A stretch of DNA of 64,000 bases from Oligoflexia bacterium (GCA_014378465.1 JACMNQ010000049.1:18679-82678); one strand, 5' to 3'; numbered from the stretch's first letter, positions 47,310-52,089 are shown. Numbers and translations: made by a program. The notes: generated from the letters alone by a model not told the origin.

Positions 47310-47386
47310 GGACTCGTAGCTCAGTTGGATAGAGCGTTAGACTACGGATCTAAAGGTCGCAGGTTCGACTCCTGCCGGGTCCACCA
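47310..47386 (+). tRNA. tRNA-Arg(ACG)
   Basis: GGACTCGTAGCTCAGTTGGATAGAGCGTTAGACTACGGATCTAAAGGTCGCAGGTTCGACTCCTGCCGGGTCCACCA; full cloverleaf with encoded CCA. Confidence 0.97.
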
Positions 47387-47393
47387 TTTAAAT

Positions 47394-47443
47394 TAGGTAA
47401 TAAAAAAGGCTGCCTCTTCGGAGGTGGCCTTTTTTATTACCTA
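47394..47443 (+). terminator. Large bidirectional hairpin terminator after tRNA-Arg
   Basis: Perfect 17-bp arms TAGGTAATAAAAAAGGC / GCCTTTTTTATTACCTA, with inner CCTC-TTCG-GAGG. Confidence 0.9.
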
Positions 47444-47604
47444 GATCTGAGTCGTGTTCAGCAGGAGGAGAAGCGAATGAGCGGCCGCGGAGGAATCTAC
47501 AGTGGAGATTTCGACGAGGAGAGACAGACAGGAGGTCTGGCTCAGCGAGTGAGGTGAGGCTACGCAGAGAGCGAGCTTGATGCGAGAGAAAGAAGTAGCC
47601 GACG

Positions 47605-47624
47605 CCTGCCGGGTCCACCATTTT
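47605..47624 (+). repeat. tRNA-Arg 3' end direct repeat (candidate att copy 2)
   Basis: CCTGCCGGGTCCACCATTTT, identical to the tRNA 3' end through CCATTT. Confidence 0.85.
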
Positions 47625-47628
47625 GAAG

Positions 47629-47670
47629 AAACAGCCGTTTCGGACAATATCCGGAATGGCTGTTTTATTT
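47629..47670 (+). terminator. Terminator following att copy 2
   Basis: AACAGCCgtTTCGGAcaatatCCGGAAtGGCTGTT then TTTATTT. Confidence 0.75.
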
Positions 47671-47714
47671 CATATTGAAGCGTTAGCCCGTGTAAAACCG
47701 GGTTAGAGAGTAGG

Positions 47715-47921
47715 CGATTCATTACCACCTCGCGGGGTGAAATTATTCAGAAGGACGACCTTGATTCAATTTTAGATGCTGGCCGAATTCGCGGTGCGCT
47801 CTCCCCTCACATGAGTTAGATTACGAACGAGGTTTACGAAACTTTCTTTACCCAGGTTGTCGAAAACATTACGGCTTGGAAAGAGGATCGAAACTATAAA
47901 AATGCACGGGAGCTAAAATGA
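47715..47921 (+). pseudogene. 2-hydroxyacid dehydrogenase C-terminal remnant with in-frame stop and internal deletion
   Basis: One frame reads RFITTSRGEIIQKDDLDSILDAGRIRGALSPHMS*ITNEVYETFFTQVVENITAWKEDRNYKNARELK*. Confidence 0.7.
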
Positions 47922-48544
47922 CAGAGTTCGCTGCTTTTCAAACCCTCTCACCCACAATTCTCGCGGACGTGTTGAACCGAGACCAGGTGATGGACATCGG
48001 TATTCGCCCTTTATGGGAAGGCATGCCGAGGATTGCTGGTCCTGCCTTTACGGTTCGATGCGGGCCTGGCGATAATCTCATGTTACATGCGGCAATCTAT
48101 AGAGCACCTCCTGGAACAATTATCGTTGTCGAATCCGCTGACAATAACTACGCCGTCGCTGGTGGAAATGTCTGTGCAGTCGCTCAGAAGCGAGGGATTG
48201 TCGGGTTCGTCATTGATGGGGTCATTCGTGACCTTGCTGAAGCACGAGAAAATCGATTTCCCGTTTTTGCTCGTGGAGTAGTGCCGATCCCTGGTGGAAA
48301 AGATGTCATCGACATACTGAACGATCGCCCTGTCCGCTGTGGCGGCGTGCAGGTCTCTCCTGGCGATACAGTCATAGCCGATGAAGAGGGAATCGTTGTG
48401 GTGCCATCGAGTCGCCAAGCCCAAGTTTTAAAGTCTGCCCAGGAACGAGCGCTGAAGGACGCGGCGACCGGGTTGGAAGCCTGGGAAGCCACTCATCGTA
48501 AACGCATTGAAGAGATTCTCCGGGCAAAGGGTTTCGCCGGGTGA
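47918..48544 (+). CDS. RraA / 4-hydroxy-4-methyl-2-oxoglutarate aldolase-like family protein
   Basis: AGPAFTVRCGPGDNLMLHAAIYRAPPGTIIVVES...GGNVCAVAQKRGIVGFVIDGVIRD; start overlaps the upstream remnant's stop (ATGA). Confidence 0.85.
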   Translation: MTEFAAFQTLSPTILADVLNRDQVMDIGIRPLWEGMPRIAGPAFTVRCGPGDNLMLHAAIYRAPPGTIIVVESADNNYAVAGGNVCAVAQKRGIVGFVIDGVIRDLAEARENRFPVFARGVVPIPGGKDVIDILNDRPVRCGGVQVSPGDTVIADEEGIVVVPSSRQAQVLKSAQERALKDAATGLEAWEATHRKRIEEILRAKGFAG

Positions 48545-48674
48545 GCGTTGTGCCGGTTCTCCAGGAGTACCGTGAAATGTTCTCCAGAAATGCTTGAGTC
48601 TCATGCGACCGCCAAGTCCCGGACTTCACTGTAGTTGAAGTACCGCTCGTGGAGAACAAAGTTTCGATAATCGG

Positions 48675-48698
48675 CTGCCAAGGTTCACCATTTTAAAG
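48675..48698 (+). repeat. Degenerate tRNA-Arg 3' end copy
   Basis: TTCGATAATCGG-CTGCCAAGGTTCACCATTTTAAAG; shares the ACCATTTTAAAG flank with the copy at 51110. Confidence 0.5.
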
Positions 48699-48780
48699 CG
48701 ACAAAGCCTCACTCGCAAGAGTGGGTCCAAACCGAAACTTTTAGTCAGGTATATTCAGGATCGTTTGATGGTCTTGTTTC

Positions 48781-48910
48781 TTAGGATTCCCAACCCCGTG
48801 CTTCAGTCGTCAGGAAGTCGAGGAAAGCTCGCACTCGAGGGGCAAGGAATCGTCGACTGGGAATCACTGCATAGATGAAACCGAACGGCTCGATGTCCAC
48901 ACGTCTGAAA
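48781..48910 (-). pseudogene. LysR-family regulator C-terminal remnant
   Basis: Minus strand: RVDIEPFGFIYAVIPSRRFLAPRVRAFLDFLTTEARGWES*, typical LTTR C-terminus; no N-terminal part present. Confidence 0.7.
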
Positions 48911-49037
48911 ACAGTAAATTATAAAGTTCGAACCTCACCGTGCCGGGTGTCCATTCGACCGGAGTAATAAATATTCTTTCGCCATTATTTCAATGACTTC
49001 TACGACGCCAGTTCCATAAGTGCAGTTCGAAGGTCGT

Positions 49038-49055
49038 CCTGCCGGGTCCACCATT
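49038..49055 (+). repeat. tRNA-Arg 3' end direct repeat (candidate att copy)
   Basis: CCTGCCGGGTCCACCATT, preceded by GCAGTTCGAAGGTCGT. Confidence 0.85.
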
Positions 49056-49073
49056 ATTTTATTGGTAATAAAT

Positions 49074-49110
49074 AAGCCGGAAGCAGAGATGCTCTCCGGC
49101 TTTTTTTATT
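49074..49110 (+). terminator. Terminator following the 49038 att copy
   Basis: AAGCCGGAagcagagatgctcTCCGGCTT followed by a T-run. Confidence 0.85.
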
Positions 49111-49151
49111 GTTGGGGAGGAATTTGCAGCCCTGTTAGGGATTAAGGTGTT

Positions 49152-49204
49152 ACATGCTAACAACATGCTAATAGACATGTTGTTAGCATGTTGTTAGCAT
49201 GTTG
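49152..49204. repeat. 16-bp inverted repeat plus overlapping direct repeat upstream of the AlbA_2 gene
   Basis: ACATGCTAACAACATG (49152-49167), spacer CTAATAGA, CATGTTGTTAGCATGT (49176-49191), further copy at 49187-49202. Confidence 0.95.
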
Positions 49205-49206
49205 AT

Positions 49207-50904
49207 ATGACAGAGGGTGAACTTAAAGAAATCGTCTCAGCCTTACGGGATATTGGAACTGACCATGCTGATGTTGAAGCAAAAGCCTGTAAAGTAGGCT
49301 TTCCTAAACGACTTTGGGAAACGCTCTCAGCTTTCGCTAACACCGCAAACGGTGGAATAATTATACTTGGTCTTGACGAGGAGGACAATTTTTCAATCTG
49401 TGGCGTAAAAGAGCCCAGAAAAGTATTGCAGGACTTTGCAAGTCTTTGCGATCAAATGGAGCCGCCAATCCGTGCCCAAATCCACCCTTATAAGTTAGAA
49501 GGGAAGACAGTCATAGTTGCTGAAATCCCAGAAGTTGAGCGCGATTACAAGCCTTGTTACTATAAGGGCTCAGGTCAGACTAACGGGGCTTTTATTCGTG
49601 TAAGCGATGGAGATCGGCGTCTCACATCTTACGAAATCCAACTTTTTATGGCCTCTCGTGGCCAACCTAGAAATGATGAAGAACCAGTAGAAGAAGCAGC
49701 TATTAATGATCTTGATAAAGCACTTGTTAAGCAGTTAGTCGCGATTGTGAAACGCAAGAGCAGGAACCTGGCTTCGAGTACTGATTTGAAAGTGCTTAGG
49801 GCAATTCATGTGGTGACCGATTACAAAAAACGAACTGTTCCAACTATTGCTGGGATATTGGCTCTAGGCAAAGATCCACAACAGTTTTTTCCTGCACTAA
49901 GTCTACATTTCGTAGTCTATCCCGAAAAACAAGTTGGCGTCCCAGGTCCCCAAGGCGAGCGCTTTCTGGACAACAGAAAGTTTGAGGGCTCCATAGCAAG
50001 TATCTTAGACCAGGCTCTAGCTGCGCTCAGTCAGCATATGATCAGGAAAACACTTGTCAGAGGAGCGGATAGAGAAGACGTTTGGCAGTATCCGGAAACG
50101 GCTTTGCGTGAAGTAATAGTGAACGCTCTCGTGCATAGAGATCTCAGTAGTGCAGCCAGGGGAACACCTGTACAGATACATATGTTTCCAGACCGACTTA
50201 CAGTCAGAAATCCAGGTGGGTTGTTCGGGCCAGTGACGATTGAGTCACTTGGAGTAAGTGGCACATCTGCCGCGCGTAATGCAACTTTGATGCGTCTACT
50301 GGAAGAAGCACCGGCACCTGGAGGCGCCGCCCCGATCTGCGAAAACCGTGGTTCCGGCATAGGTGCGATGATCAGTGCATTAACAAGAGCGGGAATGGAG
50401 CCTCCTGCCTTTGATGACAAGATTGCTTCTTTTACTGTTACTTTTCCAAATGCGTCCTTACTGAATGATGAAACTCTATCGTGGTTGGAGCAGATACGCA
50501 TAAAAAACCTGACTGATACTCAGCGTATGGGGCTGGCTCTACTTCACCATGGTAACGCTCTGGATAATTCTAAATACCGTCAAATAACAGGATTAGATAG
50601 CCGCGTAGCCACCCGAGAACTAGGTGAGTTGGTAAAGTATAAGTTGATCGAGCAAATAGGTACACGCCGATGGGCTACCTACCGACTCACATCAGGTAGC
50701 TCCCAAAGGCGTGATCGTCGATCGGAGATTATTTTGACTCTCAAGCGGAGGGGCGAGCTTTCTAGAAGTGACATTGCAAGAGAGTTGAACTTTACAGATA
50801 TGGTAACGAGGCACTGGCTTTCAAAGTTGCGAAAGGAGGGCCAAATTGAGCTTTTAGGGCCTGCTCGCTCGCCATCGGCGCGTTACCGAATAAAGAAGAA
50901 GTGA
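49207..50904 (+). CDS. AlbA_2 (Schlafen) - HATPase_c_4 - winged-helix protein
   Basis: ADVEAKACKVGFPKRLWETLSAFANTANGGIIILGLDEE (AlbA_2); YPETALREVIVNALVHRDLS...FPDRLTVRNPGGLFG...NRGSGIGAMI (HATPase_c_4); C-terminal HTH. Confidence 0.88.
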   Translation: MTEGELKEIVSALRDIGTDHADVEAKACKVGFPKRLWETLSAFANTANGGIIILGLDEEDNFSICGVKEPRKVLQDFASLCDQMEPPIRAQIHPYKLEGKTVIVAEIPEVERDYKPCYYKGSGQTNGAFIRVSDGDRRLTSYEIQLFMASRGQPRNDEEPVEEAAINDLDKALVKQLVAIVKRKSRNLASSTDLKVLRAIHVVTDYKKRTVPTIAGILALGKDPQQFFPALSLHFVVYPEKQVGVPGPQGERFLDNRKFEGSIASILDQALAALSQHMIRKTLVRGADREDVWQYPETALREVIVNALVHRDLSSAARGTPVQIHMFPDRLTVRNPGGLFGPVTIESLGVSGTSAARNATLMRLLEEAPAPGGAAPICENRGSGIGAMISALTRAGMEPPAFDDKIASFTVTFPNASLLNDETLSWLEQIRIKNLTDTQRMGLALLHHGNALDNSKYRQITGLDSRVATRELGELVKYKLIEQIGTRRWATYRLTSGSSQRRDRRSEIILTLKRRGELSRSDIARELNFTDMVTRHWLSKLRKEGQIELLGPARSPSARYRIKKK

Positions 50905-50925
50905 TTTAAAGGGAGCTGATGGCAG

Positions 50926-50964
50926 ACATGCTAACAGCTTGCTAGGTGCATGTTGTTAGCATGT
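50926..50964. repeat. Downstream copies of the same repeat
   Basis: ACATGCTAACA (50926-50936) and CATGTTGTTAGCATGT (50949-50964), the latter identical to the upstream 16-mer. Confidence 0.95.
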
Positions 50965-51109
50965 CACTAGCAATTTCTAGTTGCATCTGAATCGATGGAG
51001 TTCGAATGTTGCCTGCGCCGGTCTTCAGTAGCGATAAACTTAAACAGCGCAGCTCAGTAATTTCATGAGCTTGGAGCATTGGCCATCATAATAGCAGTTC
51101 GAAAGTCCT

Positions 51110-51129
51110 CCTGCCGGGTCCACCATTTT
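51110..51129 (+). repeat. tRNA-Arg 3' end direct repeat (distal candidate att copy)
   Basis: CCTGCCGGGTCCACCATTTT, preceded by GCAGTTCGAAAGTCCT and followed by a hairpin plus T-rich run. Confidence 0.85.
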
Positions 51130-51273
51130 AAAGTAAGAAGAAGCCTGAGTCGAAAGACCTGGGCTCTTTTCTTTTCGGGCCCTGGAGTCGCAGTGCAGTA
51201 CTTCAGGCATCAAAGCCGCCCTCGAGAACCTTGCTCTTTCAAGGTTTGAAAAAAAAGTTCTTCGATTTTTGAG

Positions 51274-52089
51274 TCAATGACTCACGTTGAAAGAAGTGAA
51301 GGTGACCCGAGTCGTGTCGCCGACTGGATTCCCTGTATTGGGTGCTGAATGATAAGCTCCGACCTTGAAATACATGGGGGTTCCAGTCCACGAAGTATCA
51401 GGAGTGAAGTTTCGCGTGACACCGTTCACCGTCGTGGTCAGAGTATTGCCCGAATAAACCAGCGAGTAAGTGATCGTATCGTTGAGTCCGACGTTACCGA
51501 TCAAAGAAGTGCGCTGAGCTATCCCGCTTGTGAGAGTTGTATACAGGGAGAGTGCGATATCCCGCTGAGCCGGACGATAGATTAAAAGGGCAAAGGCGAC
51601 GCTTTGGTTATGGATTTGCCCGATGGTCGCTTCACTTGCATTGACGGCAACCGACTGAACTGAGCAAGAAGCCCCCAGAGTGCCGCCGATGGCGCTATTC
51701 CAATCGTTGTTGGTGTCGGCCCCGAGGCCGGTGTAAATCTCTCTTAACTCCGAGCGTGTATGATCGGAGCCACTGCCCGGCGTAGTGACGGCACCATTGG
51801 AGGGAGCGCTGAACACCAATTTTCCCGCTCCGTCTGCATAAAAGAAATCATCCACGAATTCCGAGGTGAGTTGGGAAGATATAAGAGTCGTTGCCGGAAA
51901 TTGAATGCCCCCTGTTCCTCCCGTTCCACCGAAAGAGTCCACCGGCAAGGTCAGCTTCCAACCCGCAAGACTGAAAAACCGAGAGGGCGGATTACGCACC
52001 GGACCCGAAGATGGGACCTCGCTTTGACCACAGGAATTTAAAACGAATGGCGCCAAGGCTACGATGACGATGCAGAGCGATGATCGCAT
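51274..52089 (-). CDS. Polysaccharide lyase family 7 (alginate lyase-like) lipoprotein
   Basis: Lipobox VLNSC; WKLTLPVDS, RSELREI, QIHNQ, YFKVGAYHS motifs of PL7. Confidence 0.85.
   Translation of the reverse strand: MRSSLCIVIVALAPFVLNSCGQSEVPSSGPVRNPPSRFFSLAGWKLTLPVDSFGGTGGTGGIQFPATTLISSQLTSEFVDDFFYADGAGKLVFSAPSNGAVTTPGSGSDHTRSELREIYTGLGADTNNDWNSAIGGTLGASCSVQSVAVNASEATIGQIHNQSVAFALLIYRPAQRDIALSLYTTLTSGIAQRTSLIGNVGLNDTITYSLVYSGNTLTTTVNGVTRNFTPDTSWTGTPMYFKVGAYHSAPNTGNPVGDTTRVTFTSFNVSH

What the first reader, a model, noticed from the sequence alone, without database searches (positions are those of the whole stretch)
47310..51129. Array of tRNA-Arg 3'-end copies delimiting small cargo segments, with no visible integrase
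The intact tRNA-Arg(ACG) ends CCTGCCGGGTCCACCATTT. Near-exact copies of at least 17 bp occur at 47605, 49038 and 51110, with degenerate copies near 48675 and 48941. The 49038 and 51110 copies also share an upstream GCAGTTCGAA(G/A)GTC(G/C)TC block, which looks like the tRNA T-arm with an internal deletion. Site-specific recombination at tRNA 3' ends is well established for islands and phages. Here, repeated partial tRNAs separate units of about 0.2, 1.4 and 2.1 kb that lack any recombinase, suggesting serial insertion of tiny non-autonomous units (compare tycheposon/tRNA-island logic) mobilised in trans.
Basis: partly seen in the sequence, partly recalled or inferred. Interest (0 to 1): 0.8.

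Follow-up and report, generated by a model that had tools for sequence, protein, structure and literature searches.

The report
tRNA-tailed structured RNA element
Just after a tRNA gene sits a small folded-RNA element that ends in a copy of that tRNA's tail and starts with a sequence complementary to it; relatives follow many different tRNA genes across a whole bacterial phylum, each fitted to its own tRNA, which makes a little-understood E. coli curiosity (RtT RNA) look like one example of a much wider kind.

Summary
The repeats are real: three extra copies of the tRNA-Arg(ACG) 3' end at 47605, 49038 and 51110. The two degenerate copies are no better than chance. The reading changes for the first segment. 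Window 47448-47620 is a structured-RNA unit, not cargo. Covariance models built from it find relatives in at least 99 of 369 genomes of the phylum (Bdellovibrionota), nearly always just downstream of a tRNA or tmRNA gene. Many end in an exact 19-22 nt copy of that particular tRNA's 3' end, beginning in the T-loop, and begin with an antisense copy of the same sequence. 45 of 46 base pairs covary. Cores at different tRNAs of one genome can be about 90% identical while both arms fit their own tRNA. At tRNA-Gln in Bdellovibrio-like genomes, unit plus tail is precisely present or absent. The closest known kind is E. coli RtT RNA, with the same architecture but an unalignable core; Rfam's RtT model does not match. 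The copies at 49038 and 51110 are a separate matter: a 41-bp direct repeat around a recently acquired AlbA_2/HATPase gene, plausibly a small island at the same hot spot. How units acquire arms matching a new tRNA, and what the RNA does, remain open.

The parts
47310..47386 (+). Intact tRNA-Arg(ACG); its 3' end is the template of all copies
   Evidence: ARAGORN, Rfam tRNA 70.2 bits
47394..47443 (+). Long hairpin with T-run (tRNA terminator) between tRNA and unit
   Evidence: inverted repeat I2, 91% complementary; sequence
47448..47620 (+). RtT-like structured RNA unit (tRNA-tailed element)
   Evidence: models R1/R2, 176 and 155 bits (the unit is in the training set); covariation over 108 related units
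47461..47467 (+). 5' arm GCAGGAG, antisense to tRNA-Arg 47369-47375 (CTCCTGC) and, less one pair, to the unit's own tail; weaker than in many relatives
   Evidence: sequence; arm analysis (for this unit the whole-arm duplex is no better than with foreign tails)
47492..47512 (+). Core hairpin with AGT loop (approximate bounds)
47523..47543 (+). Core hairpin with conserved AGGA loop
47558..47600 (+). Third core helix, GGCTAC (47558-47563) with GTAGCC (47595-47600)
47605..47623 (+). Sense copy of the tRNA-Arg 3' end (unit tail with CCA; 19 of 19)
47628..47666 (+). Terminator-like hairpin after the tail
47918..48544 (+). RraA-like gene between first and second tail copies
   Evidence: Pfam PF03737, 3e-41
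49015..49055 (+). 41-bp direct repeat, left copy, contains the tRNA 3' copy at 49038
49152..49202 (.). Inverted repeats (ACATGCTAACAACATGC) before the AlbA_2 gene; similar set at 50926-50972
49207..50904 (+). SLFN_AlbA_2 + HATPase_c_4 gene, absent from the 96 other genomes searched at E 1e-40, low GC
51087..51127 (+). 41-bp direct repeat, right copy, contains the tRNA 3' copy at 51110

Best explanation
The array is composite. Its first segment (47387-47623) is one member of a phylum-wide family of about 170-nt structured RNA elements that occupy the 3' side of tRNA and tmRNA genes. Each element has a 5' arm antisense to the host tRNA's 3' end, a covarying multi-hairpin core, and a tail that copies the host tRNA's last ~20 nt from the T-loop on. 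The arms pair with each other into a minihelix that ends like a tRNA acceptor/T-arm. The architecture is that of E. coli RtT RNA. SHOWN by sequence: the fold, the tRNA-specific tails, the antisense arms, the one-strand bias of core wobble pairs, presence/absence at a precise site, similarity of cores within a genome across different tRNAs. INFERRED: the unit is transcribed on the tRNA strand, by read-through or its own promoter, and its 3' end is trimmed by the tRNA maturation machinery; cores spread between tRNA genes within a genome and their arms become matched to the new tRNA at DNA level. NOT KNOWN: the enzyme and the cellular role (regulator of tRNA maturation or charging, or a selfish element); a role as an RNA tied to tRNA supply is my first guess, by analogy with RtT. 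The copies at 49038 and 51110 bound a separately acquired AlbA_2 gene, probably a small island at the same tRNA hot spot.
For: R1, built from the window unit and two units of a relative at tRNA-Arg, finds units in 32 of 58 relatives; R2 in 99 of 369 genomes of the phylum with only 7 candidates scored per genome. 78 of 102 units have a same-strand tRNA upstream (70 within 350 bp; 15 amino-acid types), 6 more a tmRNA; 39 carry an exact 16-22 nt copy of the adjacent tRNA's 3' end. Antisense arms fit their own tRNA better than others: mean -23.5 vs -17.0 kcal/mol. 91.3% of cells paired vs 61.6% shuffled, 45 of 46 pairs with double changes. Core wobble G-U 135 vs A-C 30. Cores: same genome, different tRNA 0.609 vs same tRNA, other genome 0.560. 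Among similar-core pairs of one genome, arm pairs changed on both sides 45 times vs 9 on one side. Full and empty sites at tRNA-Gln. E. coli RtT is the top R1 hit of its locus, through the outer helix plus GAGAAG; gammaproteobacterial RtT units have the same tails and, in part, arms. AlbA_2 gene unique to this genome among those searched.
Against: No expression data. An intrinsic terminator stands between tRNA and unit in the window, so read-through is not assured. The terminal helix shows no wobble bias (G-U 62, A-C 66), so its complementarity may come from copying rather than RNA selection. The window unit's own arm is one of the weaker ones (rank 15 of 32). Presence/absence could reflect deletion by recombination between the direct repeats instead of insertion. 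A tandem tmRNA-tailed array in the same genome has no tmRNA within 5.9 kb.
Confidence: 0.78

Rival explanations
1. Serial integrase-mediated insertion of tiny non-autonomous units (tycheposon or satellite logic); the repeats are att sites and the units are decayed or trans-mobilised islands.
For: tRNA 3' copies are typical att products; clean empty site; the AlbA_2 segment looks acquired; the flank after tRNA-Gln differs in nearly every genome of one genus, as at an island hot spot.
Against: Units carry a conserved covarying RNA and sit at 15 or more tRNA types with tails and antisense arms matched to each, which would require a new attP each time. No recombinase between the copies. No hit in phage, plasmid or viral collections.
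Confidence: 0.15
2. Units are vertically inherited regulatory RNA genes, one ancestral copy per tRNA, with tails kept identical to the tRNA by gene conversion.
For: tRNA-Gln units recur in several genomes of one Bdellovibrio-like genus; some same-tRNA pairs are nearest neighbours (9 of 103).
Against: Patchy presence within genera; nearest neighbours lie far more often in the same genome at another tRNA (40 of 103); 91% identical cores at Trp and Ser in G028 with different arms.
Confidence: 0.2
3. Simple tandem duplication of the tRNA 3' half, with no RNA function.
For: In several loci the repeat extends past CCA into the flank (L073, L145, L148).
Against: Duplication does not create a conserved core, an antisense arm, or covariation in 45 of 46 pairs.
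Confidence: 0.03

Closest known systems
RtT RNA (rttR; tyrT repeats of E. coli; Rfam RF00391)
   Same: 3' of a tRNA gene; ends in a 19-20 nt copy of that tRNA's 3' end; 5' arm antisense to it followed by GAGAA(GC); hairpin-rich; tandem copies; several tRNA types in gammaproteobacteria (PMC4986893 reports RtT sRNAs next to tRNA-Asn and tRNA-Lys genes, detected on northern blots).
   Different: Core not alignable; Rfam RtT model gives no hit on these units while it gives 135 bits on E. coli; phylum-wide, up to 15 units per genome, tmRNA too; arms shown here to follow each tRNA.
Tycheposons, tRNA-targeting islands, phage satellites
   Same: Duplicated tRNA 3' end; hot spot behind a tRNA; presence/absence.
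   Different: No recombinase, no cargo in the unit; conserved RNA fold; many different tRNA targets with re-fitted arms.
REP/REPIN and other palindromic repeats
   Same: Short dispersed non-coding hairpin elements, many copies within a genome.
   Different: Bound to tRNA/tmRNA 3' ends, about 170 nt, multi-helix covarying fold, target-specific tails.

Membership tests
RtT RNA (RF00391) | Scores above the Rfam gathering score (45 bits) | tested here: not met
   No RF00391 hit in the window or unit loci even at loose E; E. coli control 135 bits
RtT RNA (RF00391) | Lies 3' of a tRNA gene and ends in a copy of its 3' end | tested here: met
   Window; relatives:
RtT RNA (RF00391) | 5' arm antisense to the tRNA 3' end plus GAGAA motif | tested here: met
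   Window GCAGGAG followed by GAGAAGCG, weak by duplex energy; relatives; gammaproteobacterial RtT
RtT RNA (RF00391) | Released as a stable RNA from a tRNA transcript | not testable with these tools
   No expression data
Tycheposon / tRNA-targeting island | Tyrosine recombinase in the element | tested here: not met
   Only RraA-like and AlbA_2 genes between the copies
Tycheposon / tRNA-targeting island | Direct repeats of the tRNA 3' end flank the segment | tested here: met
Tycheposon / tRNA-targeting island | Occupied and empty sites in relatives | tested here: inconclusive
   Clear for a relative's unit at tRNA-Gln, not shown for the window's own segments; insertion and deletion not distinguished

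The most novel reading that the evidence does not exclude
A gene-less mobile element of about 230 bp whose insertion is templated by its target. A conserved RNA core moves between tRNA and tmRNA genes within a genome, and on arrival both ends are rewritten, the tail as a sense copy and the 5' arm as an antisense copy of the new target's 3' end. The copied stretch starts at a fixed point in the T-loop. It is copied from DNA, since in a genome whose tRNA genes lack CCA the tails lack it too.
Probability: 0.3. Interest if true: 0.88.

Novelty: new variant of a known kind. Interest (0 to 1): 0.7.

Why it matters
RtT RNA has stood since the early work on E. coli tyrT as an oddity with no clear function. 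Finding the same architecture across another phylum, at many tRNA genes and at tmRNA, with arms that follow each tRNA, turns it into a general class. That makes two questions directly testable: how an element re-fits itself to each tRNA, and what RNAs with tRNA-like ends do to tRNA maturation, charging or stress responses. It also cautions that repeated tRNA 3' ends, usually read as att sites of islands, can instead belong to RNA genes.

Tried and rejected
Rfam scans of window and loci: no known family. CsrB/RsmZ-like sponge (AGGA loops): rejected because the loop is often ACGA, without GGA. Degenerate tRNA copies at 48675 and 48941: chance. A hidden second unit in 47623-51400: no model hit better than E 0.2 there. 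Phage, plasmid or viral carriers: none. The congener G001 has the tRNA without copies. A defence system for AlbA_2: only partial matches to PADLOC models, not pursued. Named relatives of the HD gene next to the tRNA gave only the phylum (Bdellovibrionales nearest); four named genomes, among them Bdellovibrio sp. qaytius and a Bacteriovorax, had no R2 hit. Literature searches for this family beyond RtT found nothing.

Full report
WHAT WAS CHECKED. ARAGORN places tRNA-Arg(ACG) at 47310-47386. CCTGCCGGGTCCACCATTT recurs at 47605 and 51110 exactly and at 49038 with one mismatch; the chance expectation in the window is 0.01. In the whole genome no further copy has fewer than three mismatches. The 49038 and 51110 copies share a 41-nt block (49015-49055, 51087-51127, 90%). 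The two degenerate copies are not above chance. Between the copies lie an RraA-like gene and an AlbA_2/HATPase gene and no recognisable recombinase.

THE TURN. In the relative G005 the same tRNA is followed by two copies of that genome's own, different tRNA 3' end at 229 and 242 bp spacing. The segments between align with window 47448-47620 and share covarying hairpins. A covariance model from these three sequences found units in 32 of 58 relatives, up to 13 per genome. They lie behind tRNAs of many kinds.

STATISTICS OF THE FAMILY. Of 102 units, 78 have a same-strand tRNA upstream, 70 of them within 350 bp; six more follow a tmRNA. Thirty-nine end in an exact copy (16-22 nt, mostly 21) of the adjacent tRNA's 3' end, mostly starting at the T-loop CGA or TCGA. 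The first bases of a unit are antisense to the same tRNA end: the duplex with their own tail is -23.5 kcal/mol on average against -17.0 with tails of other tRNA types; tRNA-Leu in L062, tRNA-Asn in L088 and tRNA-Val in L115 are nearly perfect. The window unit itself has one of the weaker arms (GCAGGAG against CTCCTGC) and ranks only 15 of 32 in that test. Over 108 distinct units 91.3% of base-pair cells are standard pairs (61.6% in shuffles, at most 42% when slid) and 45 of 46 pairs show changes on both sides. The alignment was fitted to the structure, which favours these numbers, but the first three-sequence alignment was not and already showed 15 double-changed pairs. In core stems wobble pairs read as G-U 135 times and as A-C 30 times, which points to RNA, or single-stranded DNA, of the tRNA strand; the terminal helix shows no such bias.

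SPREAD. With the improved model at least 99 of 369 genomes of the phylum, 62 of 182 genera, have units, a lower bound because only seven candidates per genome were scored. One 1.5-Mb genome, G342, has 15 units. Its tRNA genes lack CCA where this was checked, and its tails copy the gene and its flank, not mature CCA; the copying is therefore from DNA.

HOW IT SPREADS. Cores of units at different tRNAs in one genome are more alike (0.609) than cores at the same tRNA in different genomes (0.560) or at neither (0.532). Trp and Ser units of G028 have 91% identical cores but different arms, each fitted to its own tRNA. In 23 such close within-genome pairs arm base pairs changed on both sides 45 times and on one side 9 times; the list includes a few pairs from one and the same locus (L070/L097), which add only unchanged pairs, and one further pair set counted twice for the same reason. 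At tRNA-Gln of the g117 genus, G226 has leader, unit and 21-nt tail, followed by TTTCCATCATTAAGCA; in G236 and G233 that sequence follows the tRNA directly. This is a precise presence/absence site; whether by insertion, or by deletion between the repeats, is not settled. In g30 genomes the Leu(CAG) unit is present in G043, G050 and G052 and not found behind that tRNA in several congeners.

COMPARISON WITH RtT. E. coli tyrT is followed by GGGGAAGGAT-GAGAAGC, hairpins, and AATCCTTCCCCCACCACCA, the same plan. The model R1 finds this place as its best hit in the E. coli loci (E about 1e-3) through the outer helix and GAGAAG only. Rfam RtT hits in Chimaeribacter (Tyr, Lys) and Photobacterium (Ser) also carry exact tails, and the Tyr and Ser ones antisense arms. 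But RF00391 does not match the units studied here, so they are not filed as members of that family; they share its architecture. According to PMC4986893, RtT sRNAs were first found as RNAs released from tyrT and other tRNA transcripts, with a modulatory effect on the stringent response. The original E. coli repeat work (178-bp repeats with 19 bp of tRNA) is from my own knowledge.

THE REST OF THE ARRAY. No further unit is detectable in 47623-51400. The AlbA_2 gene is found in no other of the 97 genomes searched at E 1e-40, has GC of about 0.44-0.50 against 0.51-0.57 around, is bracketed by the 41-bp repeats and by inverted repeats, and has distant relatives on plasmids. It reads as an acquired segment at the same hot spot, plausibly a small island without its own integrase.

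IN THE SAME GENOME a second array (L308 5966-6660) carries tmRNA-like tails, followed by terminator-like hairpins, and a second core type next to an R2-type unit, but no tmRNA gene within 5.9 kb upstream.

WHAT IS INFERRED. Transcription, processing by tRNA enzymes, and function are not shown. The most cautious reading is an RtT-type RNA gene with a tRNA-like 3' end. The most novel reading is an element whose ends are templated by each target.

Noticed in passing
L308 5966-6660 (own genome, contig C69): Tandem array with tmRNA-like tails (CCGTCTCCACCA), an R2-type core between two copies of a second, different core type (84% identical to each other), with terminator-like hairpins between; no tmRNA gene within 5.9 kb upstream.
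   Followed up: partly
G342 loci L246-L274: About 15 units in a 1.5-Mb AT-rich genome whose tRNA genes lack encoded CCA; tails copy the gene's flank instead of CCA.
   Followed up: partly
L288-L306, downstream of tRNA-Gln: In a Bdellovibrio-like genus almost every genome has different DNA after tRNA-Gln, an island hot spot; a unit, where present, sits between the tRNA and the variable DNA.
   Followed up: partly
49152-49202 and 50926-50972: Operator-like inverted repeats (CATGCTAACAACATGC) on both sides of the AlbA_2/HATPase gene.
   Followed up: no
L024 1658-1773: TPP riboswitch-like element (52.4 bits, just under the cut-off) on the other strand close to a tRNA-Arg with a short 108-bp tail unit.
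   Followed up: no
L117, L082, L140, L141, L087, L146: A second subtype of core (GAGCAAGCCGGC, then GAAGCGAGCGAAAGG) in several genera, sometimes directly abutting the tRNA with no terminator between.
   Followed up: no
terminal helix of the family (alignment A2): The terminal helix shows equal numbers of G-U and A-C pairs, unlike the core, so its complementarity may be made by copying rather than by RNA selection.
   Followed up: no
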